Source: a virus
Virus record (IMG/VR): IMGVR_UViG_3300021964_008748
Span: 1-47,063 of that record
Reading direction: 5' to 3' (one strand)
DNA length: 47,063 nucleotides
Shown piece by piece: positions 13,497 through 45,898 of this stretch (positions are counted from its first letter, which is position 1; every line of letters begins with the position of its first letter). A model generated the notes under the pieces. It searched no databases, had not been told where the DNA came from, and saw only the letters and a list, made by a program, of their open reading frames with translations. Made by a program: the position numbers and the translations under genes.

Positions 13497-14101
13497 TGAA
13501 AAGCCTTTACCAATTTATTGTTAAACCCGCTAATAAGCGTTACAATAATGAAAAGAAAATAGGTGACAGTAGCCTCTTACTAAATAATAATATAGAAAGC
13601 TTTCGTCACGTTAGCAAAGAAGCAATTGTGGTTGAAACACCAAAAGCTTTTAAAACAAATATAAAACCTGGTGATAAAGTTATAATTCATCATAACATAT
13701 TTAGAAGGTTTTATGACATAAGAGGGAAAGAAAAAAATAGTGGCACTTACTTTAAAGATGATTTATATTTTGTTAATATAGATCAAGTTTATATGTATAA
13801 TCAAAATAATAAATGGATACCTCATTTAGATTATTGTTTTGTTAGCCCTATTAAAGAAGATGCTATGTTTTCAATTAATTTTGAGAAGCCCTTAGTTGGT
13901 ATATTAAAATATGGAAATAACGCGTTAGAAGCGCTTAAAATAAGCCCAGGAGACTTAATTGGCTTTACGCCGTACAGTGAGTTTGAGTTTATAATAGATA
14001 ACAAGCGTTTATATTGTATGAAATCAAATGATATTGTAATTAAGTATGAGTGTAAAGGAAACGAAAAAGAATATAATCCAAGCTGGGCGCAAAGCGGTTG
14101 A
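13496..14101 (+). CDS. Tandem two-domain GroES-like co-chaperonin
   Basis: This is a 201-residue protein that reads as two GroES folds in a row. Domain 1 (about 1-102): strand LYQFIVKP, a long mobile loop (15-33), ESFRHVSKEAIVVETP, IKPGDKVIIHHN (56-67) and NIDQVYMY. Domain 2 (about 108-186): DYCFVSPIK, a short loop, PLVGILKYGN, ISPGDLIGFTP (149-159) and MKSNDIVIKYE. The roof and loop of domain 2 are reduced. A tandem arrangement is known from plastid Cpn20, while T4 Gp31 is a single domain. The gene lies just before terminase and far from groEL. A role in folding capsid protein, perhaps with host GroEL, is inferred. Its last 56 bases also encode the start of the next gene. Confidence 0.72.
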   Translation: MKSLYQFIVKPANKRYNNEKKIGDSSLLLNNNIESFRHVSKEAIVVETPKAFKTNIKPGDKVIIHHNIFRRFYDIRGKEKNSGTYFKDDLYFVNIDQVYMYNQNNKWIPHLDYCFVSPIKEDAMFSINFEKPLVGILKYGNNALEALKISPGDLIGFTPYSEFEFIIDNKRLYCMKSNDIVIKYECKGNEKEYNPSWAQSG

Positions 14102-24695: not shown

Positions 24696-27600
24696 ATGGC
24701 TGAAGCTAAAAACAGTTTCCTTAAGGCAAAAATGAATCAAGACCTGGACGACAGGTTATTGCCCAATGGAGAGTATAGAACCGCTCAGAATGTGCTTGTT
24801 GGTAAATCTGAAGAAGATAGCGTTGGGACACTGCAAAATATTAAAGGTAATACAATTGTATCAGGAACGCAGCTTGGAGTTGGTGCTTATGGTCAAATAG
24901 AAATTATAGGGTACTACATGGACCCAACAAGTAACCGTATTATAACATTCACAACAGACTGGAGCGGTTCCGCTGTTGCTCCCGCGGACGCTAGCTGCGC
25001 CGTAAGATCTTATAATTTAAATAATGGATCTTACAATGTTTTAGTAGAGGGTAGTTTTTTAAACTTTTCTCAGAACAACACGATAATAGCTGTTAATCTT
25101 TTGGAAGATTTACTTTTTTGGACAGACAATAGAAATCAGCCTAGAAAAATAAATATAGAAACCGCTTTAAGAGAAGGTGTTTCTCATTACTACAAAGAAA
25201 ATCATATATCAGTATCTAAATACAACCCGTATCAAGCAATACTTCTTATAAATAAACAAGAAGAATCTGTAATATCTGTTACTTCAGAAACAGAAATAGA
25301 AGTTGCGGAAAATGCAAATATAACAGTAGGAATGACTGTTTTAGCATATAGAAATGGGGTTGAAATATTGTTTCCTTACGATTATGTAACTGTAACAGCG
25401 GTAGAGCCTTCCTCAGTTGCAGGGCAGATAATAATAACAACAACACAACCCCCAGCTGCATTTCTTGGTTACGAGGTTGGAGACGAAGTATGCTTTCTAA
25501 TTTCTACAATGACCGACAAAGCTGAGGACCCTACTTGGCCAGGGGATCCGGATTATTTAGAAAATAAATTTGTTAGATTTGCTTATAGATTTAAATTTGA
25601 GGATAACGAATATTCTATATATTCTCCTTTTACACAAATAGCATTTATTCCTAAGCAAAAAGGCTATTTTATTAATGGAGATGAAAATAAAGCAATTGGT
25701 AGCACTATATTAGATTGGTTTGAAAATAACGTTAACAACATTGAATTAATTATACCGCTTCCTGATAAGGGTATAAATATAGCTAATAGTTATAAAATAT
25801 CTGAAATAGATATATTATACAAAGAGTCGGATTCGTTGGCGGTAAAAGTTTTAGATACAGTTAACGTAAGCGTTATTAATAATGAAGAAAATTATTATTC
25901 ATATTCTTATCAATCGCGTAAGCCTATTAGAACACTTCCAGAAGAGCAGACCATTAGGGTTTTTGACAAGGTCCCATCAAAAGCTTTTTCCCAAGAAATA
26001 ATTAGTAATCGCGTTGTGTATGGTAATTTTTTAACTAAACCTTCACCCCCTAGCTCAATTAGCTATACTGTTAATTTTCAGCCAAAAATAGCTTCTTGCG
26101 ACTATCCTTCGTTTATAGAATATCCAAATCATAATATTAAACAAAACAGAAACTACCAAGTTGGGTTTGTTTTATCTGATAAGTTTGGTAGGCAATCTTC
26201 AGTTATATTGTCGCCTGTTTTGTCTAGAACTATTGGTACAGCAGATTTTGGAGGATCAACAATATACGCGGAATATATGTCTGACGATCCAGTTGGTTCA
26301 GGGGATATTGACCCTGGCTTTATGCCTCAAGGTGTTAAAGATTGGTTTGGCAACTCGCTGGTTGTTCAAATAAATGACCCTATTAACGGGGGTTCTACGG
26401 GTCTTTACGCTACTCCATCTGAAGACGGCAGTGGGTTTGCTTTAGACAATAGCCAACCGGTAACAATTACGGACACTGAATATATTTTTACATTAGATAC
26501 AACAGCCACTGAAAACACGGCTATTCCAAAAGAGAATGAATATCTTAGAGGGCAATATATTGATTATGTAAAAATAACCAACGTAGATGCCTCAAATGCA
26601 CCTGTTTATACGATAACTACAGAAAGCAAGGTTAATGAATCATATAAATCAACCCCTGGTTTGCCTGTAGGTTTGAAAGATATTAAGTATGCTTATATTT
26701 TAAATCCCAACGGATGGTATTCTTATAAAATGGTAGTTAAGCAAATAGAACAAGAATACTACAATGTTTATTTACCTAGTGCTTTTAGCGCTGCTGGCCT
26801 TGTTACTGGTTCTACAGATACGGATGCCAACGTAAGTTATGTAACATTGATAAATGACAATATAAATAAAATCCCAAGAGATTTAGCGGAAGTTGGACCT
26901 GACCAAAAACAATATAGAAGTAGTGTAAAACTATACGGAAGAGTAGCTCCGAGTTTTGATGCTAATACATCAATTTACAAGAACAAGCAATACTTTCCAT
27001 TAAGATCATCTGATACGTCTACGGTTGTAGGAAACGCAAGTGACCTTATAGGAGCCACTACTGCGGCTCAACAATTTTCCGCTATATCCAATACCACACA
27101 AACAACAGATACAATAATTGTAAAAAATCTTTACCCTGGAAACGTAATTCCTAGAGGAGCTAAAATAAATAATAGTTCCCTTACAAGTGTAAGCCCAGGA
27201 ACGTATGTGGAAAGCTGTTCAATACTTGGATTTAGATATAATGGAGCCCCCTCTGAGGACGGGGTTTGGGCTGAAATTAAGTTAAGTAATACTGTTGGCG
27301 CTGCAGTGGGCAACTTTATTAATTTTATTACAGAACCTGGAGCTTATATATTTCAAGGTGAAACCGATCCAATACTTGCTAGAGTCTCTACAACAAAGCA
27401 ATTCGGTATAAACTACAACGACTTTGCTCTTACAAATGCAAATGCACCTGAGGACAGATTTCAACTATCGGTTTATGAAACAGATCCTTTTATATCAGCG
27501 CTAGATATATATTGGGAAAGCTCTGAAAGTGGATTAATTTCTGATATAAACGAAGATGTAGCTGTTGGGTATGACGGGCCAACCTCTTTGCAACCACCAG

Positions 27601-29444
27601 AATTTGAACTTTGGGAAGACGATCCAATAGGACACATATTAACACAAACTTTTTACCCAGTAGATCAATTTGGTGTAGCAATACCACAAACATCTTTAAA
27701 TTCTTTTTCTGTTGAAGATGGAGCAGGGAATGTTACACAAAACGGCGCTTTATTTTCAATAAATCAAATTACTAGCGGTCCGGATCAGGGTGCTTACCAA
27801 ATCCAGTCAGCTGCGGAATTTGCTTATTTATGGAACAGCTATCAAAACAATGTATATACCTTTTCTATAGAAGTGCAAAACACAAATCCTTCAACAGAGT
27901 GGGAATTCCAAACTTTAACTTTTACTGGAAGTCTTAAAAATAGACCTCCTGATTTTACTTTACCATCGCCCCCTAACTACGTTTTTAACAATACCTTTGG
28001 GTTAAACACCCCAATTGCAGATTTTGGATTGTTTTACAATCCAGCTAACCCAACTAATCCTGTGAATGGCACTATTGACGCAAACTTAAAAACAGAAGAT
28101 TTAGTTTGGGATATAGAATATGGTAATGATGACGGCTTTTTTGAAATGGACCCTAACGGTTTTATAACAATAACACTAGCTGGATCGCAGGCTCCTAACG
28201 CTGTATATCCAGTTGGAGTCAGGTTATCTGATGCCACAGAGCTTAATCAATTCCAAGACCCCGGTCGATTAAGTGTTACAAAAGTGGTAAATTTAATAAA
28301 AGGATTTGAGCCTACAAATTTTAACAATCCTGTACAAGGTTCTGAATCGTATGTTAATTGGTGTCAATACACAAGTCCATTTGAAGTTAACACAATTTAT
28401 TACATGTCTGACTTCAATTATGCTCAATTACCTCCTAATGATGTTTTTGATTTTTTACCAGCAACTTTACCGCCAAATTTTAATGTTAACTTTCAGCCGA
28501 CTACACCAGCTCTAAAAAGGGGTGAGTTTGCTTTTGGATTAGAAAACTGGTATGCTTATCCTTACGATTGCAATGGCGATGGGGCAACAGCACATAGTTT
28601 TGTTGAAGTAGAAGCTTATAAAAGGCCAATTGACAGTTCAACTGGTATACCAATAGGTGGTGCTAATGCAGCATGGACTCCAGCTCCGGATTTAAATGGT
28701 ATTGTGGTGCAGAATGTTAATTATCATTTTATAGATGTTTACGATAAGGCAGGAGAGACTGCGGCTCAAGGAAGCCAAGGAATGAGTTCTTGGTTAGCTT
28801 TTGGAGACACCATGCATGAATATGCTTTTTTAGTAACTATAAAAAATGGCTCTGGTTTTACGCGGACCTCAACCTCTGGCTACATTAGGATTAGAGATTT
28901 GCACTACCCTGGACCAAATTTTACTCAAATACCTTATGAATTTACAAATGGTTCTGGCGACTACTACTATGCGGACAGCCCCTTTTTCCAATATAATTTA
29001 AGGTACTTTCAGACTTCTGATCTTATTGATCAAGTTGCCGTAAATCCACCGGGGTTTGACGGTAATAGTCTTACCACATATGTAACAAAAAGATATACAT
29101 CTCCAACGACTAGTGTTCCAGTGATGGACGCTCAATTTAATTGGTGGGACTTTAGCGTAGGAGTTGTGATGAATAACCCGGAGATTTGGTATTGCAGAGG
29201 TACCGGCACGTATGATGCTCAAAATGATGTTGACAAAACAGGGACTCCTCCGTTTGTGGTAACTAAAAAAGTTACAACGACTAATAATAGTTATCCGCCT
29301 TCACCAACCGCAAACTGGCAAACCCGTGGACCTAACTATCCTGGGGAGTTTCCATGGAATAGATCTCAGCGATTAAGCGGTGGTACCGGTGTACCAACTC
29401 CTCCAGGAGGTGGATTTTGGTCTCAGTTTTTTCCTGACATGTAG
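24696..29444 (+). CDS. Tail nozzle protein with added Ig/cadherin-like domains
   Basis: This is a 1582-residue protein, about twice the length of T7 gp12. The N-terminus (LDDRLLPNGEYRTAQNVLVGKSEEDSVGTLQNIKGN, about 15-50) has the feel of the nozzle or tail-stabilisation fold, where a short tail tube opens to a beta-propeller. Residues 180-800 are beta-rich. Residues about 1080-1185 read like an Ig or cadherin module: NRPPDF at the start, then WDIEYGNDDGFFEMDPNGFITI and YPVGVRLSDAT. The last 400 residues (Asn/Pro/Gly/Tyr-rich, ending GGTGVPTPPGGGFWSQFF) form a further exposed part. I infer added host-surface contact. No enzyme motif was seen. Confidence 0.7.
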   Translation: MAEAKNSFLKAKMNQDLDDRLLPNGEYRTAQNVLVGKSEEDSVGTLQNIKGNTIVSGTQLGVGAYGQIEIIGYYMDPTSNRIITFTTDWSGSAVAPADASCAVRSYNLNNGSYNVLVEGSFLNFSQNNTIIAVNLLEDLLFWTDNRNQPRKINIETALREGVSHYYKENHISVSKYNPYQAILLINKQEESVISVTSETEIEVAENANITVGMTVLAYRNGVEILFPYDYVTVTAVEPSSVAGQIIITTTQPPAAFLGYEVGDEVCFLISTMTDKAEDPTWPGDPDYLENKFVRFAYRFKFEDNEYSIYSPFTQIAFIPKQKGYFINGDENKAIGSTILDWFENNVNNIELIIPLPDKGINIANSYKISEIDILYKESDSLAVKVLDTVNVSVINNEENYYSYSYQSRKPIRTLPEEQTIRVFDKVPSKAFSQEIISNRVVYGNFLTKPSPPSSISYTVNFQPKIASCDYPSFIEYPNHNIKQNRNYQVGFVLSDKFGRQSSVILSPVLSRTIGTADFGGSTIYAEYMSDDPVGSGDIDPGFMPQGVKDWFGNSLVVQINDPINGGSTGLYATPSEDGSGFALDNSQPVTITDTEYIFTLDTTATENTAIPKENEYLRGQYIDYVKITNVDASNAPVYTITTESKVNESYKSTPGLPVGLKDIKYAYILNPNGWYSYKMVVKQIEQEYYNVYLPSAFSAAGLVTGSTDTDANVSYVTLINDNINKIPRDLAEVGPDQKQYRSSVKLYGRVAPSFDANTSIYKNKQYFPLRSSDTSTVVGNASDLIGATTAAQQFSAISNTTQTTDTIIVKNLYPGNVIPRGAKINNSSLTSVSPGTYVESCSILGFRYNGAPSEDGVWAEIKLSNTVGAAVGNFINFITEPGAYIFQGETDPILARVSTTKQFGINYNDFALTNANAPEDRFQLSVYETDPFISALDIYWESSESGLISDINEDVAVGYDGPTSLQPPEFELWEDDPIGHILTQTFYPVDQFGVAIPQTSLNSFSVEDGAGNVTQNGALFSINQITSGPDQGAYQIQSAAEFAYLWNSYQNNVYTFSIEVQNTNPSTEWEFQTLTFTGSLKNRPPDFTLPSPPNYVFNNTFGLNTPIADFGLFYNPANPTNPVNGTIDANLKTEDLVWDIEYGNDDGFFEMDPNGFITITLAGSQAPNAVYPVGVRLSDATELNQFQDPGRLSVTKVVNLIKGFEPTNFNNPVQGSESYVNWCQYTSPFEVNTIYYMSDFNYAQLPPNDVFDFLPATLPPNFNVNFQPTTPALKRGEFAFGLENWYAYPYDCNGDGATAHSFVEVEAYKRPIDSSTGIPIGGANAAWTPAPDLNGIVVQNVNYHFIDVYDKAGETAAQGSQGMSSWLAFGDTMHEYAFLVTIKNGSGFTRTSTSGYIRIRDLHYPGPNFTQIPYEFTNGSGDYYYADSPFFQYNLRYFQTSDLIDQVAVNPPGFDGNSLTTYVTKRYTSPTTSVPVMDAQFNWWDFSVGVVMNNPEIWYCRGTGTYDAQNDVDKTGTPPFVVTKKVTTTNNSYPPSPTANWQTRGPNYPGEFPWNRSQRLSGGTGVPTPPGGGFWSQFFPDM

Positions 29445-29485: not shown

Positions 29486-31078
29486 ATGGCAGCTATACTA
29501 GAAGTAAAGTATTATAATTCCTTTTGGTTGAAAAAAATTAAAGAGGTCACAGATCAAGGTAGCGAGCCTTTAGAGCAGACTATTAATATTAATTTTCAAG
29601 ACCCATTAAACAAAGCTTTAGTTGGAATAAATCCACAAATCAATATTTTGCAAGGAGACGTAGGGTCACAAATAATTATACAAAACCCAGACGGGCAGCA
29701 ATTTAGCGGATATATATTAGAAAAACCTTTTCCTAATAGAATATTATTAAATAAAGACCCTGGATTTGATCTTAATACTGATCCTGGAGCCGTGGTAACT
29801 ATTGGTAAAATTATAAACTTTGATCAAGTTCCGCAGTATTATACAGAGTCTGAGGACGATTGGTATATTGAAGAAGCCAGGATACGTGGAGGCTATAACA
29901 ATACCTCGGTTGATTTTGGCGTAAAAGCTTATGCTGTTGACGAAAATCCAAATGGTGAGGTAAGAAATAATGCTTTAATATACTCTGGAATATATAATTC
30001 AAAAACTGGAACTAACAACACAAATCAATTTCCGATTGGGTCAGAAATAACAAAAGCGGTAGACCCAGCGAATGGTTCAATACAAAAATTATATGCCGAG
30101 GATTCTAACTTAATTATATTTCAAGAAGATAAAGTTAGTAGAGCTCTGATAGATAAAGACGCTATTTACTCTGCAGAAGGTGGTGGAACTGTTACAACAA
30201 GCAACTTAGTAATTGGCACAATACAGCCGTATGGTGGCGAATATGGTATATCAACCGAACCTGAAAGCTTCGCTGTGTATGGCTACAGAAAATATTTTAC
30301 TGATAGAAAAAGAAACGCTGTGCTTAGATTATCAATGGATGGCATTGAAGAAATATCTAGATATGGCATGACTGATTTCTTTAGAGACAACTTGTCTAGT
30401 TTAATTTCAATTTCCAAAGTTATTGGCGGGTATGATTTGCATACTAAAAAATACGACGTTTCTTTATCGCTACAAGGTCAATTTTTAGAAGTTGGTAATC
30501 CAAAGCAAAGCTACAGCACTCTTTCTTTTGATGAAAGCGTTAAAGGGTGGACAAGTTTTTATACTTATGACCCTGATTTTGTGGCTAGTTTAAAAAATAA
30601 ATTTTACTCATTTAGAGCAGGGGGAATTTGGGAACATTACAGAAACAATGGAGGCTATAGTACATTTTATAATGTGCCTAATAATTCTAGTGTTACTTTT
30701 ATATTTAACCCAAATGTTTCGATGGTTAAGGCATTTAAAACTGTTAACTACGAAGGGTCTGCTGGTTGGGAAGCTACAGCTATTAACACCGACCAAGATA
30801 CAGGTGTCCCAATTGGACAATATGTTTCTACAAACAGCTTAGCGTCTTTAGAAAATCAACTATTTGTAAACCAATTTATAAACAAAGAAGGTAAATATTT
30901 TGCAAATATAAACAACAATACATTACAACAAACCGGTGCTGTTATTTACGGTAATTCAATGACAGGAGTTAAAGGGTTTTTTAATACAGTAACCATGTCC
31001 TTGGTTGGGACGAATGCAACAGCTAGCCAAAAGGAATTGTTTGCGGTATCAACAGAATATGTTGAATCATCTTATTAA
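29486..31078 (+). CDS. Tail structural protein, nozzle partner
   Basis: This is a 530-residue beta-rich protein. The middle carries EEARIRGGYNNTSVDFGVKAYAVDE, KLYAEDSNLIIFQEDKVSRALID and YGGEYGISTEPESFAVYGYRKYFTDRKRNAVLRLS. I associate this run with tail-hub or 'muzzle'-type virion proteins of Bacteroidota phages, including crAss-like ones (memory, not checked). Blades of the type x-YAVYG-x-R suggest a beta-propeller. It may be the second half of the nozzle, split from the 1582-residue gene. A 41-base AT leader precedes the start. Confidence 0.68.
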   Translation: MAAILEVKYYNSFWLKKIKEVTDQGSEPLEQTININFQDPLNKALVGINPQINILQGDVGSQIIIQNPDGQQFSGYILEKPFPNRILLNKDPGFDLNTDPGAVVTIGKIINFDQVPQYYTESEDDWYIEEARIRGGYNNTSVDFGVKAYAVDENPNGEVRNNALIYSGIYNSKTGTNNTNQFPIGSEITKAVDPANGSIQKLYAEDSNLIIFQEDKVSRALIDKDAIYSAEGGGTVTTSNLVIGTIQPYGGEYGISTEPESFAVYGYRKYFTDRKRNAVLRLSMDGIEEISRYGMTDFFRDNLSSLISISKVIGGYDLHTKKYDVSLSLQGQFLEVGNPKQSYSTLSFDESVKGWTSFYTYDPDFVASLKNKFYSFRAGGIWEHYRNNGGYSTFYNVPNNSSVTFIFNPNVSMVKAFKTVNYEGSAGWEATAINTDQDTGVPIGQYVSTNSLASLENQLFVNQFINKEGKYFANINNNTLQQTGAVIYGNSMTGVKGFFNTVTMSLVGTNATASQKELFAVSTEYVESSY

Positions 31079-33821: not shown

Positions 33822-36800
33822 ATGTATAAAAATGCTTCAGGTAGAACAGTAAGTATTGAACAAATGAAGTCTTGGGCGGACTCGGAAGGCGTAAGTGTTG
33901 AAGAGTACGCTTCTATGAGTGGCTTTACTTTAATTCAAGAAGAAATAGAAATTCCCAGCGATGAGGGAAAGCTAAAGGGTGCGGCAACAACGGATGCGGA
34001 TGCAGCACCTGTAATAATACCGGAAAACGTATCCGAGGTTGTAACTGTGGAAAAGGAGGAGCCTGTAGAAGTAAAAGCACCGAAGTCGGAAAATCTTATC
34101 GATATGGAGTCCAGATTGGAAGAGCTTTTATTGGAGCAGAAATCCGCAAGAAGTAAACCAGGAAGCAGCGGAAGAGTGATTGGTAGAAAAATATCAACAC
34201 TAAAAAGCGAAATACAACGAGAAAAAGAAGCTGTTTTTTCACCTAATAAAGGGCCGAATTTGGAAGATCCATTTAGCTTAGTTATGGAAACAGAAGAAAC
34301 GGTTGAGTCTATTTTAGAAAAAGAATACCCTATTCAAATAGTACAAACAGACGTTAGAAACGCTGTTAAGTACAAAGATCCAAGAACAGGGGAAAATAAA
34401 TATATAAATTTAAGACCTTCTTCATACGAAGAAAAATTAAATACAGCCAATCAAATTAATCAATTAAAAAATTCATTTGAAACGCTTACGGCTGAAGAGT
34501 ACGGATCTCAAGTTGTGGATACTTTTATAGACAGATTTGAGCAAGGCACAGAAAAAGCGGATATTGAGCAATTGAACTATGGTCTTAACGGTACCGGTTA
34601 TGAAATAAAAACAGTTGCACAAACCGAGCAGTCAGTAAATCCTCTTGGAGCACCTGTTATGTCTACAGCATTTTTCCAGGTTTATAAAGACGGGAAGCTT
34701 GTAGATACTTTAGGCAAAGAAGAATTGGCTGATTTTTTTAATAACAACCTAACTCCTGAAGACGAGGATATTCTTAAAAACAATTCTTTTAAAGCTTACG
34801 AAGCTTTTGAAAGTAAAATTTCAAAAAGAAAAGAAGCAGAAGGGAAAAAAGTAGATGAGTTAGATATGACCAGAGCCTACTTAGATTCTGGTAAATTTTC
34901 GGAAAGATTGGCTTTTACGTTAAGTGACCCAAAATTAGGTTTAGGATTTACAAATGAAGAGGCTCAGGTTGTTAAAAATTATATAGACAACAGAAAAGAC
35001 AAACGTAAAATAAAATATACCACATATGGGGCTGCAACCTCCTCATATACCATGTCCCCTCAAGACTACGTTCAATATAAAACCGACCTTAGTGATTTAC
35101 CTGAAGAAATTAAAGCTAAGCTTACGCCTGAACTGCTAGAATCTATATTTAGTCAAGGCTACGAAAACTATAAAACATCAGAATTAGATTCGCGTATGGT
35201 TACCATACAGGAGGCTATGATGAAAGAATCAGGAAAAGCTAACTTGCTTAAACTTGCCTATCGTTTTGACAAAGAGGACGTTGATCTATACAAAAAGGGT
35301 AAGAAAGAATATAAGGAAGAGTTAATTAAAACTCGTGACCATATTGCTAAAACTATTGTTGGAGAAGCTGAAAGAATATCAAAATCTACTCCAAATGTTG
35401 AATTTAAAGTAGACAATGTTGACGGTCAATACGTATTTACAGCAACCCAAACAAAAAAGGGTTTATCTGAAAAAGAGCAAAAACAAGTGAATTTAGCAAT
35501 GGGACAATGGTATAAACTCCAAAGGTCTACCATGTTAGCTCAAGCTGATTACAATCAAAGCGCGCAAAATTACGTACAAGACATTGCCCAATTCCAACAA
35601 AAAAGACAAGACAGAGAGTTAACGCCAGGAGAGCTTTTTGATCTTAGCATGAAAGAATATGATACAGGGGCATTGCTAGCTAAGGATCTTAATGATGCTT
35701 TCGCCGGGCTAGCGTTAGCTGTGCCAACTGTATTAGGGGGATCTGAATATGCCGTTAAAGAACAAGAAAGACTGCAAAGAAAAAATCAGCAATTTGAAAC
35801 TATGCTTACTTATGACCAAGCATTGGCGCAAGGTAGAGCTGGTTTATTTGGCTTAAGGACACTAGGTCAACAAGCACCTAATATTATATTAGCCATAGGA
35901 ACATCCGGAGCTGGAACAGCGTTGGGCATGAGCAAAATAGCTACTCAGCTAGCTGTTGGTACTCAATTTGGAGTATCCTCAGGAGCTCAAAAATATAGAG
36001 ACTTAGTAATGGCTCAAAAACTTGGGGAAGACGCTAAGAATCAAAAAGAATTAAACCGCGTTGCTTATGAGTCTGGCTTAATAGACTACAATACTTACGC
36101 GTCAAATGAACTCGATCTTAATAAAACAATAGCAATGGGTGATCTTACAGATCAACAAATTGTGAATGCCGCATGGGCAACTGGTTTTATTGAAGGTGGA
36201 GTAACATCATTTATAGGTACTGCGCCTAACTCGTTAAAAGCCATTAAAGACTTTTCAAAAAGCGGTGTAAATGTATCAAACTTTTTATACAAAAGTAATT
36301 TACGAAAGCTTGGCATGGCGGGTCTTGAACTTGGTAAAAGGTTAGGTGGCGAAATACTTGAAGAAGAACTTATTTACTTTGGAGATACAGCATTAAGCGA
36401 GGGCCTCATATTAGGCAGGGATATGGACTTTAGCCAATGGGATGATACAGCTGTTTCTGCTTTGATTACATCAGGCACAATGTCTACACCAGGTGTTGCG
36501 TACTCTGCATTAATGAATAATGCAGCTACCGTAGAGTTTCAAAAAGATATTAATGGTTTAACCCAAGATATACAAGACTTAAGTATAAGTATACAAGAAT
36601 CTACAGACGCTAGTTCAAGAGATATACTTATTGCGCAATTGGCTACTAAAATGAAAGAGCAAGGCTTTGCTGTTACAGGTTTGGAAGTTGACGCAATAGC
36701 ATTGGGTGGTGATAATCAAAAGAAACTGCTCGGCCTTGGTAGACTAGAAAAAGAGTTAATGTCTGAAGCTGGTGTAAGACCAGAAGACACCCCAACAATT

Positions 36801-39800
36801 GCTGAAGAAAAAGTAAACAACTATAAAGCCAAACTAAACAAAGAAGGTAAAAACCAACAGGCTGAAAATTTTGACATTAGAAGAGCTACCATTAAGAAGC
36901 AGCAAGATCAGCTTAAAAAAGATGTTAATTACGATCGCGTTGAAAACTCGCTAGGTCCATCTGGTAAAAGAATAAAACAAAAGCTTGAAACAACCGATAC
37001 TAATAAAGCAAATGAATATCGTTCTTTAAATAGAAAAGACAAGCTTGCTTTTATTATTAACGAAATTAGGAATGAGCAAAGGTTAAGCCACGTTAGGCTA
37101 GCCAAGGAATCACCTGCAATCGTTAAAAAGGTAGAAAGCTTAGTAGATGCAAACGGCAAGCCTTTGTCTAAAACAGCAAAAGAAAAAGCATACGCTAACG
37201 CGGGGGCCAACCTTATGTTCAATAAAGGTAGAGCAATAACTTTGAGTACAACCGCAAAGGCTTCTTCTGAAATAGTTAATGCTGCTGATTTAACAATACT
37301 TGAGGTTTCTAATAAGAAAGAAGCTCAAAAGCTATTAGAAGACACAGACTTAGACGACGACGCTAAAAATGAGATATACGCATCGTTAGAAAAAGAGGGC
37401 AGTAATGGTTTTATATATAATAACAAGTATATTACTTTTAACAAAGATCGCGCAGAAGCCGCAATAAAAGAGGGTAACATACTGCAATCAACCGCTATAG
37501 TGCACGAAGTAGCACACGCTATTGATGATCGTGTTTTTGATACGCCTGAAAAACAAAAACAATACGCGGACAATCTTCATGCTAGGCTATCTCAGCCTGA
37601 TTTAGCTGGTGTTGATGAACAGGTTAAAAACGTATTAGCAAACAGAGATGACCTTGCTGATGATGCTGGTAAAGAATGGAAAGACACAAGCGCTGCATAC
37701 AAAGATGAGTACACGAAGGTTGCTCAAGAAACTTTTTATGCTTTTGACGCTGAGCTTAATCAAGAAGCTAAAAGATCTAAGGAAAGTTTTTTCAATGGCA
37801 TTAACACTGCCACTCCTGACGGTGCTTTAAATTACATGCTAAACCGTAACGCTGACTTTAGAGAAGGTAAGATTGGCAAGCGTATACAAAAGAAAGTTAA
37901 AAAAGGGCCCAAAAAGTCTTCGCTAAAAGGTAAACCATCATTTAGCGCGCCAAGCAGTTTTAATACTGATGACAAAAACAGAATGTTTCAAAAAGGTAAT
38001 GAAGCATTTAACACGGGGGCAGAATCTTATGGATTAGATTTAAGAATAAATGAAGACGGTAAACCAAATTTTACAAAAGAACAATGGGATGCTGTTCCTG
38101 ATGATACTAAATTAGTATTAGGTTATTTTGTAGGGCAGGAATATGAAAGCTATGTAGCATACAGAATGCGATCAAGAGATCAAGTCCCTAGGTATGATGA
38201 GTTTAAAGATGAAATAATAAATAAAACCGCAACAGGTATTCAAAAAGGAGATGATGGTATACCTTTCTTAATAAAATCATACAATCCCGAAGGCGGAACA
38301 AAGCTTAGTAGTTACATATTTGGTCAAATAGACAATAGATTACAAGGCGTAATTAATAAAACAAAAGGCTTTGGTGAACTTACCGTAGAAGCCGCCCCTT
38401 CTGAACCAGGAAGAAGAGAACTTGTTGGTAAAGAAAAAGCTGACGATACTTTAAAAAGAGCAGAGCGCGAGGCTAAAGAAGTTAAAAAAGAATTTCCACA
38501 GATAACCGATGAGGTTATTGTTCTTGATAAAGAAGGAAACCCAGTATCAATATCTAATCAAGTTCAAAAGAAAGTAAAAGACAGTGTTAAAGTAGCATAT
38601 GCTACAACTAAGTTTACCGCTCCTATTGGTAGTAAAAAATTCAGAACTGAGCTTGCTAATGCAATGCGTAATAAATTAGGTAACTTATTCAAAAGTATTA
38701 TGGATCGCGGCGCTAACTTCGATAATACTGAGAAAGTTGGTAATAAAGAAAAAAGAGCCAATTACGATTCGTTCGTGGATAGAAACTTTCAGAATGTGTA
38801 TAGCATAATGCCTAAGTCTACCATTTCAGACAGATTTCCATTTTTAATGGAGGAGATCACGAATGAAGATGGTTCTCCAGATTACATGTCAGTTGCCGAG
38901 GTTGAGGCTTACAACGACGCTATTGATCGCGGCGCTATAAGAGGTAAGCGTATTGCAAATAAGTATGCAAACAATCGTAAGTTTAAGAAAAGAAAATATG
39001 ATGGCCAAGTTAAAAAAGAAGGTACTGAATATTTAAAGGCTAACGATAAAGCAACCAACGTACGAAATGCACGTAAAACTTCGTTTGCAGATGTTATTGC
39101 TGAAGAGGCTGCTTTTGATATATTGCCAGAAGTACTAAGAGAAAATGGTTTAGCTAAAGAAGCTGAAATTGTTGAAATTGAAAAACAAACAGGTAGAGGT
39201 AAATTTTCTGTTGGTAGAATGGATCCTACAGAAAGATTTAAATTTGATCTAAATAAAGATTTGTTTTTTGATCGTGTAATGAGCCTTAAAAATCTTAGTA
39301 AGGGTAATATTAAGAAAGTATTTTTAACAACGTATGGAGCGCTTGATTTTGATCCTAAGATAATAGACGGCGTAGCTGAACAGTTTGCAAACAGACTTAA
39401 ACCCGTTAACAAAGCGGTAGAAAGCGTGCCAGTTCCATTGTTTAAAGAAATATTAATTGATATATCAAATCAAGCAGACGAGGCTTTAGCTTTACAAAAA
39501 TTAGTTGGGGCAGCAATGAACGCTTCTGAAGTTTTTAGAGATAAAGATAACATTATACTCACTAGGGCGGCAGCAATTGAGAACATGCAGATGATAATTG
39601 ACAAGTACGGTGTTGATGAAGGTCTACAGATGATTGTAGCTTTTGCAAATAGCTCGTTTAGTTCATCAGCTTCAATAGGGTTATTTAAGTTTGATTTAAA
39701 AACTCAAAAACTAGTACCAGGCATTAGAAAAGACGGAAGACCCATAACAAAACCAGGAGCCGATTTGTTTAGTGGAGCAGAGGATTTACTGCAAAGCCTG

Positions 39801-42800
39801 TACAATAAATTAAATTTAGATGGCAAAAAGATTGATAAAATAACAAACAAAAAATTATTTTTTACAGACGGAACCTCGGTTGATAGAAAGTATAGCCCTG
39901 TAACTAACGTGTCAAAAGGCATGCTAAGGGAAAACTATAAGCCTGATGAAATAAACTACAAAGCTGCCCAAGAGTTTGTTACTTCGTTTTTTGAAAACTT
40001 TGCAAAGCAAGATTTAGATCCTAATGTAGCGCTAACATTGCTTTCTACCATGAACAATGGTACAAGTAATGCGCTAAGAGCATCAGCTAGAGTTTGGGGT
40101 AAATCTACTGTTATAAAATCAGACAATCCATCAGACTTTAGATTTGAGCACGCAATTCCAGCAAGGGTTGTTTTAGCTTATATGTATGATTACTATGTAA
40201 ACGGAAATACCGAGCATAATATGGAAGCGCTGTGGAATGACTACAGGGTAACCATTATTCCAGTTAAAGAAATGGACAAGGTATTAGACGCCGCGGGATT
40301 TGGAGCTATAACTACATCCAATTATGTTCCAGGTGAAACAGCTTGGCACAATAGATATTATAATTTATTCACAAAAGGACGCATGCCATACGCCATGGTT
40401 AGCTATGACGGCACGGAAACTGTAGGAGAACAGTATGAACAATACTTTAACGAAAAGGGTAAAAACCCTGTAATTAAAGCAGACGCTACACAAGAAACTG
40501 AAGAAAAAAGAACAGTTGATAAAGCAATGGCTAATGCACGTGAGGGAAAGTATTCAATTACACCTAAAGGTATTAGCGTATATGATTTTGACGACACACT
40601 AGCATTCAGTAAAAGTCAGGTTATAGTAACTAAAGATGGTAAGACTTATAGAATAACACCTGCAGAATTTGCTAAACAAGGCGAAACGTTAGCAAATGAA
40701 GGCGCTGAATTTAATTTTAGCGAGTTTAGCAAAGTTGTTAAAGGAACGCCAGGACCACTAGCACCAAGACTTAAAAAAGCAATAGAAAAGTTTGGTAATA
40801 AAAATATATTCGTATTAACAGCAAGGCCGGCTGACTCAGCTCCGGCTATATATCAATTTTTAAAAGGTATAGGTTTAGAAATTCCGCTTGAAAATATAAC
40901 TGGATTAGCCAACGGAGCACCCGCGGCTAAAGCCGCTTGGATGGTTGGCAAAGTTGCCGATGGATATAACGACTTCTACTTTGTAGATGATCACATGGGT
41001 AATGTTAAAGCTGTCAAAGATGTGCTTAATGTTTTTGATGTTAAAGGCAAAGTTCAGCAAGCTAGAGTTAAACACAGCATTAGCTTAGACGTAGACTTTA
41101 ATAAAATGATAGAACGCCAAAAGGGTGTTGAAGACTTTAAGGAATTTTCTTCAGCGGTTGCTAGAAGAAGAGGCAAAACAAAGGGTAGATTTAAATTCTT
41201 TATTCCTCCAAGTGCAGAAGATTTTAGAGGTTTAACACAATATGTATTTGCCGGCAAAGGAAAGCAAGGTGAAGCTGACCAAGCATTTTTTGAGCAAAAT
41301 TTAATGGATCCTTATTTTCAAGGTGTTGCAGCAATGGAAAGAGCTCGTCAAACAATTAAGAATGACACTAGGGCTTTAAATAAAATGTTTAAACCAGTTA
41401 GAAGAATTATTAATAAACTTGTACCGGAAGGAGATTATACATATGATTCCGCTATTAGAGTTTATCTTTGGGATAAAGCTGGTTACGAAATACCTGGTAT
41501 ATCTAAAAGAGATCAAGCTAGACTAGTAAAACTTGTAAGGAATGACGCAGACCTATCGGGTTATGCAGATGGATTATTAGCTGTGTCAAAGAAAGATAAA
41601 TGGACTGAGCCAGGCGAATTTTGGGATGCTAAGACTGTACTTAGTGATTTGCAGAGTTTAACAGAAAAAGTAAATAGAAAAGAATATCTAGCGGAGTTTA
41701 TTGAAAACGCCGAAACTATATTTAGCGAAAAGAATTTAAATAAAATAGAAGCTGTATATGGTACAAACCTAAGAGAGGCTATTGAGGATTCTTTATTTGC
41801 AATGAAAAATGGCACAAACCGTACTTCAGGCGCCAACAAGATTACTAATGCGTGGAACAATTGGGTTAACAATTCTGTTGGTACTATAATGTTTTTTAAC
41901 AGAAGATCAGCCTTGCTGCAAACTATATCTTCAATTAACTTTATTAATTGGAGTGACAATAATCCTTTAAAAGCAGGTTTAGCGTTTGCTAATCAACCTC
42001 AATACTGGAAAGACTTTGCTATGCTGTTTAATTCCGATAAATTAAAGCAACGTAGGGGAGGTTTAAAATCTGACGTACAGGAGCAAGAGATTGCTAATGC
42101 TGCTAAAAATGCGAAGGACAAGGCTAGCGCTGCTGTTTCTTATTTATTAAAAATAGGATTTACGCCAACGCAAATTGCGGATAGTTTTGCAATTGCAGCA
42201 GGTGGTGCTACATTTTATCGCAACAGAGTTAATACTTATTTAAAAGAAGGTATGTCTCAAGAAGACGCCGAAGCAAAAGCGTTTTTGGACTTTAGCAAAA
42301 TATCAGATGAGTCACAGCAATCAGGTGATCCGGCTTTAGTATCTCAACAACAGCGAAGCGTTGCAGGACGTCTTATATTGTCTTTTCAAAACACGCCTAT
42401 GCAATATACTAGATTGATGAAAAAAGCTGCCCAGGACCTTGTAAATGGCCGTGGGGACGCTAAGTCAAATATATCTAAGATTGTTTATTATGGTGCCGTG
42501 CAAAATATAATATTCTCAGCTTTACAAAACGCGGCGTTTGCTTTAATACCCGGGTTTGATGATGAAGAGGAAACAGAAGAACAAAGAGAGGCTACACAAG
42601 ATAAGAAGCTTGCGCGTATGTTAAACGGTATGACCGATACAATATTGCGTGGTACTGGTATATATGGAGCTGTAGTGTCTACTGTAAAAAATACTATATT
42701 AAAGTTCTTAGAGCAAGATAAAAAAGGATACACGGCAGATCATACATATACCATCATAGAAGCCGCAAACATAGCACCTCCAATAGGATCTAAGCTTAGA

Positions 42801-43298
42801 AAAATATACTCTGGTATTCAAACGTATAAATTTGACAAAGATGTTATAGCTAAGCATCCTTGGGACGTTACGATGGACGGTAAGTTTAATCTTTCACCAA
42901 CATATAGTATTATTGGTAATGTTGCATCAGCTACATTAAATGTACCGCTTGATAGAGCAATAATGGAAACCCAGGCTATTACCGAGGCTTTTGATAAAAG
43001 AAATACCGCATTTCAAAGAATGGCGCTAGGCTTAGGCTGGAGAACATGGGATGTTAACGCTAAAAACGAAGAGTTTGATTTAATTAAAACAGGAGCTAAA
43101 AGTGTTAGGAAAGAACAAGGAAAGGTAAAAGCTAAGGAAACAAGACGTAAAAATACACAAAAGAAAGCTACATTTAGGGCTCAAGTTTACGATAGCCTTA
43201 GTAACGCTGAAAAATTAAAATTAGAAAATTTAGGAAGAGGAGAAATAAATCAATTTTATATTGATATGGGTAAAAAATATAACATTAAAAAAGATTAA
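33822..43298 (+). CDS. Giant multidomain ejection/internal virion protein (zincin, sigma-like, HAD)
   Basis: This is a 3158-residue protein, over twice T7 gp16, and would be injected ahead of DNA. Visible parts, in order: an acidic N-terminal arm; helical regions; a hydrophobic segment near 690-720; a zincin helix HEVAHAID (1228-1235); a sigma-region-2-like stretch (about 1480-1512, IPFLIKSYNPEGGTKLSSYI); a HAD-like domain with DFDDT (2255-2259), Thr2333 in VLTARPADS and Asp2389/Asp2390 in FVDDHMGN; and a conserved-looking C-terminal module (about 2440-2960, FAGKGKQGEADQ, FQNTPMQ) with a hydrophobic VQNIIFSALQNAAFALIPGF. The C-terminal module resembles giant proteins of uncultured marine podophages (memory). 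No transglycosylase motif was seen. Zincin and HAD calls are from motifs; roles are inferred. Confidence 0.78.
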   Translation: MYKNASGRTVSIEQMKSWADSEGVSVEEYASMSGFTLIQEEIEIPSDEGKLKGAATTDADAAPVIIPENVSEVVTVEKEEPVEVKAPKSENLIDMESRLEELLLEQKSARSKPGSSGRVIGRKISTLKSEIQREKEAVFSPNKGPNLEDPFSLVMETEETVESILEKEYPIQIVQTDVRNAVKYKDPRTGENKYINLRPSSYEEKLNTANQINQLKNSFETLTAEEYGSQVVDTFIDRFEQGTEKADIEQLNYGLNGTGYEIKTVAQTEQSVNPLGAPVMSTAFFQVYKDGKLVDTLGKEELADFFNNNLTPEDEDILKNNSFKAYEAFESKISKRKEAEGKKVDELDMTRAYLDSGKFSERLAFTLSDPKLGLGFTNEEAQVVKNYIDNRKDKRKIKYTTYGAATSSYTMSPQDYVQYKTDLSDLPEEIKAKLTPELLESIFSQGYENYKTSELDSRMVTIQEAMMKESGKANLLKLAYRFDKEDVDLYKKGKKEYKEELIKTRDHIAKTIVGEAERISKSTPNVEFKVDNVDGQYVFTATQTKKGLSEKEQKQVNLAMGQWYKLQRSTMLAQADYNQSAQNYVQDIAQFQQKRQDRELTPGELFDLSMKEYDTGALLAKDLNDAFAGLALAVPTVLGGSEYAVKEQERLQRKNQQFETMLTYDQALAQGRAGLFGLRTLGQQAPNIILAIGTSGAGTALGMSKIATQLAVGTQFGVSSGAQKYRDLVMAQKLGEDAKNQKELNRVAYESGLIDYNTYASNELDLNKTIAMGDLTDQQIVNAAWATGFIEGGVTSFIGTAPNSLKAIKDFSKSGVNVSNFLYKSNLRKLGMAGLELGKRLGGEILEEELIYFGDTALSEGLILGRDMDFSQWDDTAVSALITSGTMSTPGVAYSALMNNAATVEFQKDINGLTQDIQDLSISIQESTDASSRDILIAQLATKMKEQGFAVTGLEVDAIALGGDNQKKLLGLGRLEKELMSEAGVRPEDTPTIAEEKVNNYKAKLNKEGKNQQAENFDIRRATIKKQQDQLKKDVNYDRVENSLGPSGKRIKQKLETTDTNKANEYRSLNRKDKLAFIINEIRNEQRLSHVRLAKESPAIVKKVESLVDANGKPLSKTAKEKAYANAGANLMFNKGRAITLSTTAKASSEIVNAADLTILEVSNKKEAQKLLEDTDLDDDAKNEIYASLEKEGSNGFIYNNKYITFNKDRAEAAIKEGNILQSTAIVHEVAHAIDDRVFDTPEKQKQYADNLHARLSQPDLAGVDEQVKNVLANRDDLADDAGKEWKDTSAAYKDEYTKVAQETFYAFDAELNQEAKRSKESFFNGINTATPDGALNYMLNRNADFREGKIGKRIQKKVKKGPKKSSLKGKPSFSAPSSFNTDDKNRMFQKGNEAFNTGAESYGLDLRINEDGKPNFTKEQWDAVPDDTKLVLGYFVGQEYESYVAYRMRSRDQVPRYDEFKDEIINKTATGIQKGDDGIPFLIKSYNPEGGTKLSSYIFGQIDNRLQGVINKTKGFGELTVEAAPSEPGRRELVGKEKADDTLKRAEREAKEVKKEFPQITDEVIVLDKEGNPVSISNQVQKKVKDSVKVAYATTKFTAPIGSKKFRTELANAMRNKLGNLFKSIMDRGANFDNTEKVGNKEKRANYDSFVDRNFQNVYSIMPKSTISDRFPFLMEEITNEDGSPDYMSVAEVEAYNDAIDRGAIRGKRIANKYANNRKFKKRKYDGQVKKEGTEYLKANDKATNVRNARKTSFADVIAEEAAFDILPEVLRENGLAKEAEIVEIEKQTGRGKFSVGRMDPTERFKFDLNKDLFFDRVMSLKNLSKGNIKKVFLTTYGALDFDPKIIDGVAEQFANRLKPVNKAVESVPVPLFKEILIDISNQADEALALQKLVGAAMNASEVFRDKDNIILTRAAAIENMQMIIDKYGVDEGLQMIVAFANSSFSSSASIGLFKFDLKTQKLVPGIRKDGRPITKPGADLFSGAEDLLQSLYNKLNLDGKKIDKITNKKLFFTDGTSVDRKYSPVTNVSKGMLRENYKPDEINYKAAQEFVTSFFENFAKQDLDPNVALTLLSTMNNGTSNALRASARVWGKSTVIKSDNPSDFRFEHAIPARVVLAYMYDYYVNGNTEHNMEALWNDYRVTIIPVKEMDKVLDAAGFGAITTSNYVPGETAWHNRYYNLFTKGRMPYAMVSYDGTETVGEQYEQYFNEKGKNPVIKADATQETEEKRTVDKAMANAREGKYSITPKGISVYDFDDTLAFSKSQVIVTKDGKTYRITPAEFAKQGETLANEGAEFNFSEFSKVVKGTPGPLAPRLKKAIEKFGNKNIFVLTARPADSAPAIYQFLKGIGLEIPLENITGLANGAPAAKAAWMVGKVADGYNDFYFVDDHMGNVKAVKDVLNVFDVKGKVQQARVKHSISLDVDFNKMIERQKGVEDFKEFSSAVARRRGKTKGRFKFFIPPSAEDFRGLTQYVFAGKGKQGEADQAFFEQNLMDPYFQGVAAMERARQTIKNDTRALNKMFKPVRRIINKLVPEGDYTYDSAIRVYLWDKAGYEIPGISKRDQARLVKLVRNDADLSGYADGLLAVSKKDKWTEPGEFWDAKTVLSDLQSLTEKVNRKEYLAEFIENAETIFSEKNLNKIEAVYGTNLREAIEDSLFAMKNGTNRTSGANKITNAWNNWVNNSVGTIMFFNRRSALLQTISSINFINWSDNNPLKAGLAFANQPQYWKDFAMLFNSDKLKQRRGGLKSDVQEQEIANAAKNAKDKASAAVSYLLKIGFTPTQIADSFAIAAGGATFYRNRVNTYLKEGMSQEDAEAKAFLDFSKISDESQQSGDPALVSQQQRSVAGRLILSFQNTPMQYTRLMKKAAQDLVNGRGDAKSNISKIVYYGAVQNIIFSALQNAAFALIPGFDDEEETEEQREATQDKKLARMLNGMTDTILRGTGIYGAVVSTVKNTILKFLEQDKKGYTADHTYTIIEAANIAPPIGSKLRKIYSGIQTYKFDKDVIAKHPWDVTMDGKFNLSPTYSIIGNVASATLNVPLDRAIMETQAITEAFDKRNTAFQRMALGLGWRTWDVNAKNEEFDLIKTGAKSVRKEQGKVKAKETRRKNTQKKATFRAQVYDSLSNAEKLKLENLGRGEINQFYIDMGKKYNIKKD

Positions 43299-44179: not shown

Positions 44180-45898
44180 TTACCCATCACAAGCCAAACA
44201 ATCTTCATTCATTGCTGCGGCTGCAATATCACCTCGCAGAACACTTTCCGTTCGAGTATAGTACAAGGTTTTAACACCTTTCTTCCAAGCTTCAAAGTGA
44301 ACTTTATTAAGCCATTTAGGTGTTGCTTCACTAGGAAAAGCTAGGTTCAGACTAACTGATTGATCTATATACTGTTGTCTAAGTCCAGCTTGACTAACTA
44401 GCTCTAGTTGATTAATCTCCTTAAAAGTCTTAAATACCTCTTTTGCGGGGGTGTCGTGCCCCATAGTAATATCATCAAGCTCAGCAATATCTTGAACACT
44501 ACCACCATCAGCAAGGATTTTATCCCATATTTCATTTGTATTCAGTTTATGTTTTCTTAATAACTTTAGAAGCGTAGGGTTTTTTCTAATAAAAGTTCCT
44601 TTAGCCGATTGCTCTGTAAATACATTAGCAGCCCAAGGTTCTATTCCTGCTGAAACATTTCCCGACAACTTACTATTACTAACAGTGGGAGCAACAGCAC
44701 GGAGGTGAGTGTTGCGATAACCAGTGCCAGCGCACCACAGAGGCTCACCATAAATTTCAGCAAGAGCCCTGGAAGCCCTCTCGCTTTCAATCTTAATTTG
44801 TGAAAATATTTTCCTAGTTTCAAACTGAGATAATAAACCTTCGAAAGGAATACCTTTTTCCTGGAGATATGTATGCCATCCGAGGACCCCCAAGCCCAAG
44901 GCCCTTCCTTTTTGAGCTGAACGTATAGCATTTTCGAATCCTCTAAGTCCCTTCGCTCTTTGTATAAATTCTTCCATAACGCCATCAAGAAACCAGATAG
45001 AGTCATATATAAGATTAGTGTCTTTCCATTCTTCATATTTTGCTAAGTTTAATGATGATAAACAACAAACAAAGCTGTGGTTCTCATCTGTGTGTAACGC
45101 AATTTCTGAACATATGTTTGTCATATGTACTTTTAAACCGTTTTCTTTATATGCTCTTGGATTTGCTTTGTTAACATTTCCTTTAAACATAATGTACGGC
45201 TCTCCAGTTGCTTTTCGTTTTCTAAGAAGTTTACTCCATCTATTTCTAGCATCCGCATCTCCTTGTTCAAGCTTTCGCATAAACTTATCGCCAACAATTG
45301 CGCACTGATGTAAATTAAGCGATTGTCTGTTAACGTCTCCTTTAGGTTCTCGTATTTCAAGCCACTCTTCAAAATCGTCGTGTTCAATGTTGATATTGAC
45401 GCTTGCAGCTCCACGTCTAACCGATCCTTGATTTGTTGCAAGAATTGTTGAATCGTAGATCTTGCAGAAGGGTACGACTCCGTCTGATGTTCCATTGCCT
45501 GTTATTTTAGCGCCGGCGGGTCTTATTTGATTAATACCGATACCAACTCCACCGCCATGCTTAGCGAGCAGCATCATCTCTAAGTTCTTTTGTCCTATGT
45601 CCTGTATACTATCAGCAACATCGATACCAAAGCAGCTAATAGGCAAACCACGATCAGTGCCGGTATTAGATAATACTGGGCTCGCGAGACAAAGCCATCC
45701 GTTCCAAATATATTCGAAGAAAGTTTCTGCCATTTCCGGCTTATATAATCTACGAGCAACCGTTTTACTGACGCGCATGTATGCCTCTCTAGGTGACTCT
45801 CCGTCAAATAAATATCCCCCGGATATTGTCTTCTTGTATACGTCTGTATTACCCCACGTAGGGTAATCCTCTCCTTTTTTCCAATTTTCATTCCACAT
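44180..45898 (-). CDS. nrdA: Class I ribonucleotide reductase large (alpha) subunit, no ATP cone
   Basis: This 572-residue enzyme reduces ribonucleotides to deoxyribonucleotides. It lacks the N-terminal ATP-cone, so overall activity should not be shut off by dATP; E. coli NrdA has about 760 residues. Active-site residues are present: Cys89 (PISCFG) and Cys278 (FVCCLSS) as the redox pair, the radical Cys263 in NICSE with Asn261 and Glu265, and Tyr546-Tyr547 (LYYTRT) for radical transfer. The C-terminal CLACDG carries the Cys567/Cys570 pair. GGGVGIG at 115-121 follows the usual layout. It needs a beta subunit, probably encoded at 46905 and beyond. The ATG directly follows the upstream stop. Confidence 0.95.
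   Translation of the reverse strand: MWNENWKKGEDYPTWGNTDVYKKTISGGYLFDGESPREAYMRVSKTVARRLYKPEMAETFFEYIWNGWLCLASPVLSNTGTDRGLPISCFGIDVADSIQDIGQKNLEMMLLAKHGGGVGIGINQIRPAGAKITGNGTSDGVVPFCKIYDSTILATNQGSVRRGAASVNINIEHDDFEEWLEIREPKGDVNRQSLNLHQCAIVGDKFMRKLEQGDADARNRWSKLLRKRKATGEPYIMFKGNVNKANPRAYKENGLKVHMTNICSEIALHTDENHSFVCCLSSLNLAKYEEWKDTNLIYDSIWFLDGVMEEFIQRAKGLRGFENAIRSAQKGRALGLGVLGWHTYLQEKGIPFEGLLSQFETRKIFSQIKIESERASRALAEIYGEPLWCAGTGYRNTHLRAVAPTVSNSKLSGNVSAGIEPWAANVFTEQSAKGTFIRKNPTLLKLLRKHKLNTNEIWDKILADGGSVQDIAELDDITMGHDTPAKEVFKTFKEINQLELVSQAGLRQQYIDQSVSLNLAFPSEATPKWLNKVHFEAWKKGVKTLYYTRTESVLRGDIAAAAMNEDCLACDG

What the first reader, a model, noticed from the sequence alone, without database searches (positions are those of the whole stretch)
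38259..38355. Sigma-factor-region-2-like stretch in a virion protein
Residues about 1480-1512 (FLIKSYNPEGGTKLSSYIFGQIDNRL) resemble the sigma70 region 2 pattern of an RNA polymerase-binding helix: a KF-x-P-x-x-G-x-x-F-x-x-Y core. In an injected protein this could help take over host transcription at the very start of infection. The likeness is by eye.
Basis: inference. Interest (0 to 1): 0.62.

Follow-up and report, generated by a model that had tools for sequence, protein, structure and literature searches.

The report
Sigma-factor-like domain in giant phage protein
A giant protein of an uncultured marine phage, probably injected with its DNA, carries a domain that is a distant look-alike of the part of bacterial sigma factors that grips RNA polymerase, and the same domain recurs at the same place in dozens of related giant proteins; whether it really binds the host polymerase is untested.

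Summary
Residues 1480-1512 of the 3158-aa protein lie in the core of a ~105-residue helical domain (1418-1522, nt 38073-38387) related to sigma70 region 2. The window protein alone hits no Pfam, NCBIfam or PDB sigma entry, but the family does. It was found in 52 of 245 long ORFs, at a fixed place after an HExxH motif. A sigma-only profile run against 316,756 residues put its 17 best hits inside this domain, which is 1% of them. HMM-HMM comparison with 12 sigma factors gives 94% probability (score 46.9; best of 200 shuffles 20.7). The trimmed domain is predicted confidently (pLDDT 91); 9-10 of 13 PDB fold matches are sigma chains, none individually significant. It is a degenerate, region-2-only version: the glycines, YNP-G turn, Leu427 and Tyr430 positions persist, while Trp433/434, Gln437 and Thr440 are lost, with no region 4. 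Most of 25 related contigs also carry an ordinary ~250-aa sigma gene; none shows a multisubunit RNA polymerase. Best reading: a sigma2-derived domain in a probable ejection protein, most likely docking on host RNA polymerase. Homology is well supported; docking and takeover are inference. I found no report of it in the papers searched.

The parts
33822..43298 (+). giant protein gene, 3158 aa, last large gene of the structural module; host protein of the domain
   Evidence: open reading frame; synteny with Flavobacterium elemo and Cellulophaga/Tenacibaculum phages whose last giant gene is annotated structural protein; C-terminal homology to the Gundel_1 structural protein E 9e-10
38073..38387 (+). 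sigma70-region-2-like domain, residues 1418-1522
   Evidence: AlphaFold2 model pLDDT 91, pTM 0.82; Foldseek PDB best hit 8b3z_C SigE N-terminal domain, 9-10 of 13 hits sigma; hhalign vs sigma 94% with alignment A5, 91% with the deeper A10
38100..38177 (+). helices 1427-1440 and 1442-1452, counterpart of sigma region 2.1 helix
   Evidence: AlphaFold2 secondary structure; aligned to RpoD region 2.1 in hhalign
38193..38276 (+). helices 1458-1471 and 1480-1485, counterpart of sigma region 2.2 (GIQKGDDGIPFLIKSY); 4-residue insertion KTAT relative to other families
   Evidence: alignments A5, A8, A10 and residue map
38259..38355 (+). the reported stretch: end of 2.2, YNPEGG turn, start of 2.3-2.4 helix
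   Evidence: sequence; gapless register with RpoD 412-443
38304..38360 (+). helix 1495-1513, counterpart of sigma region 2.3-2.4 helix, without the Trp dyad
37503..37517 (+). HEVAH (HExxH) metallopeptidase-like motif, residues 1228-1232, about 200 aa before the domain
   Evidence: motif scan; nearly all of the related giants have it at similar spacing; no Pfam hit
40578..40598 (+). HAD-like phosphatase motif (VYDFDDTLAF region), residues 2253-2259, upstream of the most conserved block 2281-2430
   Evidence: motif scan and conservation; no Pfam hit
42120..42572 (+). conserved C-terminal domain used to find the 80 distant giants
   Evidence: alignment A4 and viral-contig search

Best explanation
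The stretch is the core of a divergent sigma70-region-2 (sigma2) domain embedded in a giant, probably virion-packaged and injected protein of Bacteroidota-type podoviruses. SHOWN by computation: a family of such domains at one fixed place (after an HExxH motif) in dozens of giant proteins, remotely homologous in sequence and predicted fold to sigma2. INFERRED: the giant protein enters the cell with the DNA, and there the domain docks on the host RNA polymerase (the beta-prime clamp helices, which sigma2 grips). It thereby occupies the housekeeping sigma site and/or tethers polymerase to the incoming genome before any phage gene is expressed. The phage's own ordinary sigma factor, present in most related contigs, would take over later for promoter recognition. 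Because the promoter-melting residues are gone and there is no region 4, it is more likely a docking or competing module than a complete sigma factor. Rough odds: sigma2 homology 0.85; RNA-polymerase docking given homology 0.5.
For: Sigma-only HMM: top 17 hits of 316,756 residues all in the domain. PDB profile search: sigma factors are the top two hits. hhalign 94%, far above shuffles; separate subfamilies give 60-87% in the same register. NCBIfam scan of 71 members: SigI in 35, SigK in 19, most of the listed families sigma. Pfam Sigma70_r2 hits two giants directly within single virus records, E 1e-5 and 0.0013. AlphaFold2 pLDDT 91 and Foldseek lists dominated by sigma chains in PDB and prominent in the viral library. 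The related phages depend on host polymerase as far as seen: no RNA_pol_Rpb1_2 in 26 records with working control. Most of 25 related contigs carry a stand-alone sigma with regions 2-4, so sigma-directed control of host polymerase is part of this lineage's biology. The giant domain also aligns to that phage sigma in the same register, 65-67%.
Against: Foldseek E-values are individually not significant (best 1.4) and TM-scores 0.41-0.53. The window sequence alone hits no sigma model, and no giant reaches Pfam's gathering score. Promoter-contact residues are lost; the Glu407 position is Lys and the Asn409 and Met413 positions differ in the window clade, so the conserved positions are mainly those expected to hold the fold rather than the known binding surfaces. 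Some subfamilies (e.g. L023/L027, L035/L039, L022/L036) show no significant sigma match of their own. The A10 profile also hits an archaeal Piwi protein, E 1e-4, which I take as chance because that fold is not among the Foldseek matches. Virion location and injection were not demonstrated.
Confidence: 0.5

Rival explanations
1. The domain descends from sigma2 but has been reused as a structural or DNA/protein-binding helical module of the giant protein (for example a spacer or substrate adaptor next to the HExxH peptidase-like domain) and has no dealings with RNA polymerase.
For: Conserved positions are mainly fold-determining (glycines, turn, hydrophobics); RNA polymerase- and promoter-contact residues differ. 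Fixed spacing of about 200 aa to the HExxH motif across the family.
Against: Tyr430 and the Gly408/Gly411 positions stay nearly invariant over very diverged families, and the motif block is more conserved than most of the giant protein. The lineage invests in sigma-type control.
Confidence: 0.37
2. The likeness is convergence on a helix-turn-helix-capping pattern (aromatic-[DN]-P-x-x-G-x-x-hydrophobic-x-x-Tyr) without common descent from sigma.
For: Individually weak Foldseek E-values; a Piwi protein scores as well as sigma with one profile; several subfamilies have no sigma signal of their own.
Against: The similarity extends beyond the motif over about 68 aligned columns including the region 2.1 helix, recurs independently in several subfamilies, and sigma is the overwhelmingly most frequent family in the NCBIfam and PDB fold results.
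Confidence: 0.12
3. The domain is part of an anti-host module in which the HExxH peptidase-like domain is brought to RNA polymerase, or to sigma/anti-sigma partners, by the sigma2 mimic and cleaves them.
For: HExxH motif directly upstream in nearly all giants examined; metallopeptidases are common in polyvalent proteins (recalled; the paper is PMC5512222, which I searched for other terms only).
Against: No protease family was recognised, no substrate is known, and such motifs may serve self-processing.
Confidence: 0.08

Closest known systems
Sigma-70 region 2 (Pfam PF04542); nearest solved examples SigE N-terminal domain 8b3z, SigK 8vjl, RpoS 5ipl
   Same: three-helix region 2.1-2.4 arrangement, I-[QE]-x-G-x-x-G, aromatic-[DN]-P-x-x-G, Leu/Phe427 and Tyr430 positions, same register
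   Different: inside a >2000-aa protein, no region 3/4, no Trp433/Trp434, Gln437, Thr440, below Pfam's gathering score
Stand-alone ~250-aa sigma factor of the same phage lineage (L281-L300)
   Same: region 2 aligns in register, 65-67% hhalign probability
   Different: the stand-alone gene keeps regions 2, 3 and 4 and is a free protein; the giant domain has region 2 only
GafA, activator of gene transfer agents (PMC6363796)
   Same: a sigma-like domain fused to other domains in a phage-derived protein
   Different: GafA carries a DnaA-like DNA-binding domain and is a cytoplasmic regulator, not a virion protein
Virion-delivered host-takeover proteins: T4 Alt, N4 virion RNA polymerase, polyvalent proteins (PMC5512222, PMC12633501)
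   Same: large proteins delivered with the genome that act on transcription or host defence at entry; multidomain architecture
   Different: a whole-word search for 'sigma' found none in the 2017 polyvalent protein paper; here no polymerase or ADP-ribosyltransferase was found

Membership tests
Sigma-70 family, region 2 (PF04542) | reaches the curated Pfam gathering score | tested here: not met
   window protein no hit; best giant 21.6 bits against cut-off 24
Sigma-70 family, region 2 (PF04542) | remote sequence homology to sigma region 2 | tested here: met
Sigma-70 family, region 2 (PF04542) | sigma2 helical fold | tested here: inconclusive
   pLDDT 91 model; sigma chains dominate Foldseek lists, but best E 1.4 and TM-score at most 0.53
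Sigma-70 family, region 2 (PF04542) | -10 recognition and melting residues (Trp433, Trp434, Gln437, Thr440) | tested here: not met
   Gly, Gln, Asn, Gln at these positions in the window
Sigma-70 family, region 2 (PF04542) | binding to the beta-prime clamp helices of core RNA polymerase | not testable with these tools
   Gln406 position kept (Q/E), Glu407 position Lys in the window clade
Complete sigma factor | region 4 for -35 recognition | tested here: not met
   no convincing region 4 match in any giant
Ejected or polyvalent virion protein | present in virions and injected | tested here: inconclusive
   gene position and C-terminal homology to a protein annotated structural in Gundel_1; no proteomics available
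Ejected or polyvalent virion protein | several enzymatic or binding domains in one polypeptide | tested here: inconclusive
   HExxH and HAD-like motifs plus the sigma2-like domain at fixed order, but Pfam recognises none of them

The most novel reading that the evidence does not exclude
A widespread group of marine phages packages a sigma2 mimic inside its giant injected protein, so that host RNA polymerase is captured or stripped of its own sigma at the moment of DNA entry, before the phage's own sigma factor is made: a virion-delivered sigma or sigma competitor.
Probability: 0.35. Interest if true: 0.85.

Novelty: new variant of a known kind. Interest (0 to 1): 0.6.

Why it matters
These phages seem to lack a multisubunit RNA polymerase of their own, so how they seize the host enzyme at entry is open. 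A sigma2-like domain in an injected protein gives a concrete, testable answer and puts a name on part of a protein of over 3000 residues for which the Pfam and PHROG scans gave no recognised function. It would also add transcription capture to the known repertoire of virion-delivered effectors.

Tried and rejected
Single-sequence searches (Pfam, PHROGs, PDB) gave nothing. tblastn of the domain against named phages gave only a Synechococcus phage sigma factor at E 1 and an unrelated hypothetical protein; the L085 domain found no named phage, and the A9 subfamily found nothing in bacterial genomes. No domain was detected in the elemo, Gundel, Calle (part of the gene only), Fpv3 or phi19:3 giants by profile. 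A sigma query in viral contigs returned only near-identical RpoD copies. Considered a chance motif: rejected by the sigma-only scan and shuffles. Considered a complete sigma factor: rejected, no region 4 and no melting residues. Considered the Piwi AF1318 match: set aside, one family, and absent from Foldseek results. The T7-type polymerase search had no working control, so its absence is not claimed. The stand-alone sigma gene is not found in the window; the contig ends 3.8 kb after the giant gene, whereas in relative G005 the sigma gene lies about 11.5 kb beyond it, so it may simply be cut off.

Full report
WHAT WAS CLAIMED AND WHETHER IT IS THERE. The window is a 47,063-base virus record (G000). 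ORF 33822-43298 encodes 3158 residues. Residues 1482-1507 read FLIKSYNPEGGTKLSSYIFGQIDNRL, as reported. The pattern is Tyr-Asn-Pro-x-x-Gly-x-Lys-Leu-x-x-Tyr, close to the sigma pattern but with Tyr and Leu for the two Phe.

WHOSE GENOME. ORF 29486-31078 matches structural proteins of Flavobacterium elemo, Cellulophaga Calle_1 and phi19:3, and Tenacibaculum Gundel_1. The gene order GroES, terminase, portal, capsid-region proteins, large structural protein, small proteins, giant protein resembles Calle_1 and elemo. Gundel and Calle are short-tailed (podoviral) phages of Flavobacteriia (PMC8776804). A host in Bacteroidota is therefore likely (inference). The C-terminal part of the giant protein is homologous to the 2482-aa Gundel_1 protein annotated structural (E 9e-10). 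That it is a virion and ejection protein is inference from this and from position.

SINGLE-SEQUENCE TESTS WERE NEGATIVE. Pfam, PHROGs and PDB by phmmer gave no sigma hit for the window protein, and the seven-sequence close family gave none in PDB, Pfam or NCBIfam.

THE FAMILY. A search of viral contigs with the conserved C-terminal domain returned 80 giant proteins. An HMM of the reported region, iterated only on these, converged on 52 of 245 ORFs with the domain, about 4 kb before the C-terminal domain. An HExxH motif lies about 170-300 residues upstream of the domain in nearly all of them, and a HAD-like motif further on in about half. Members read, for example, FDIIEAYKPLTTKLTNKYRNVPGFEFELLQSEIEIGKRGLLDLINAYDPSKGATLNTYVQGQL. 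A later search with one subfamily found 188 matching viral stretches.

IS IT SIGMA? Six tests, partly independent. (1) Profile of 18 members against PDB: best hits 8b3z sigma factor (E 0.0018) and SigK (0.003), then RpoS and RpoH in the same register. (2) hhalign against a region 2 alignment made from 12 sigma factors (E. coli RpoD and RpoS and ten phage sigmas): 94%, score 46.9; 200 column-shuffled versions at most 20.7; reversed 9.2. (3) The reverse search, an HMM of those 12 sigmas only, against 316,756 residues: its 17 best hits (E <= 0.15) lie in the domain, which makes up 1% of the sequence, and the next ones include further variants (YDPKKGKFSTHVYNNI) in other giants. (4) Splitting the giants into subfamilies, several give 60-87% alone and others weaker matches in the same register, while some give none. 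(5) NCBIfam scan of 71 members: SigI 35, SigK 19, FliA/WhiG 7, and most other listed families are sigma; Pfam Sigma70_r2 hits giants in two records at E 1e-5 and 0.0013, below the gathering score. (6) AlphaFold2 of residues 1418-1522: pLDDT 91, pTM 0.82. Foldseek in PDB: best match the SigE N-terminal domain (TM 0.53 by its length), 9-10 of 13 sigma chains; in the viral library named sigma or RNA polymerase subunit proteins are prominent among the better-scoring matches. Single Foldseek E-values are not significant. Homology to sigma2 is my reading at about 0.85.

WHAT IS KEPT AND LOST. Placing Gly1476 on RpoD Gly408 gives a gapless register to Lys1513. Kept: Ile405, Gln406 (Q/E), Gly408, Gly411, Leu412 (Ile), Phe419 (Tyr), Asp/Asn-Pro turn, Gly424, Phe427 (Leu), Tyr430, Ile435. 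Lost: Arg423, Tyr425, Trp433, Trp434, Gln437, Thr440; Glu407 is Lys in the window clade. The roles of these RpoD residues in polymerase binding and -10 melting are from general knowledge, not tested here. No region 4 follows. So it is not a complete sigma factor.

CONTEXT THAT BEARS ON FUNCTION. Of 26 whole virus records (the window and 25 related giant-protein contigs) none encodes a multisubunit RNA polymerase detectable by PF00623, with a working control; the T7-type search had no working control and is not used. Nineteen of 26 have a Sigma70_r2 match. Nearly all are ~250-aa stand-alone genes with the conserved start MKxYNxxNYxRxKxD; the alignment of the stand-alone genes matches sigma region 2 and the full sigma alignment through region 4. 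The giant domain aligns with this phage sigma in register (65-67%). The window lacks the gene, but it ends 3.8 kb after the giant gene, while in the closest long relative G005 it lies about 11.5 kb beyond.

MECHANISM. Best reading: a sigma2-derived docking module delivered with the genome that engages host RNA polymerase at entry, by competition with host sigma or by tethering, before the stand-alone phage sigma is made. Shown: the domain family, its sigma2 likeness, its fixed architecture, the accompanying sigma genes. Inferred: injection, binding, effect. The main rival is a sigma2 fold reused without polymerase binding; the residue pattern leaves this open. Pure convergence is less likely.

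KNOWN OR NEW. Phage sigma factors, virion-delivered polymerases and Alt-type effectors are known. Whole-word searching for 'sigma' in the 2017 polyvalent protein paper (PMC5512222) found none, and the literature searches here turned up no sigma2 domain in an ejected giant protein; the nearest is the sigma-like part of GafA (PMC6363796). The library is not complete. I rate it a new variant of a known kind.

Noticed in passing
L281-L300 (related viral contigs); none in the window: Most related contigs encode a stand-alone ~250-aa sigma factor (MKKYNVQNYIRYKED...DLIQEG...) with regions 2-4 but without the Trp dyad; one contig (G016) has in addition a second, RpoD-like sigma (L291).
   Followed up: partly
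window 37503-37517 and 40578-40598: HExxH (HEVAH) and HAD-like (VYDFDDT) motifs in the giant protein; the block 2281-2430 after the HAD motif is the most conserved part (over 90% identity). Neither domain is recognised by Pfam.
   Followed up: partly
window 24696-29444 and 29486-31078: Two ORFs (1582 and 530 aa) match the N-terminal and C-terminal parts of one PHROG (phrog_14478), which is a single structural protein in Calle_1 and elemo: the gene seems split here.
   Followed up: no
window 5759-7315 and 13496-14101: The phage encodes both a GroEL-like chaperonin and a GroES-like co-chaperonin.
   Followed up: no
window 44180-45898 (-): Ribonucleotide reductase large subunit on the opposite strand just after the giant gene.
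   Followed up: no
alignment A10 against PDB: The deeper domain profile also matches the N-terminal part of the archaeal Piwi protein AF1318 (E 1e-4); probably chance, not seen by Foldseek.
   Followed up: partly
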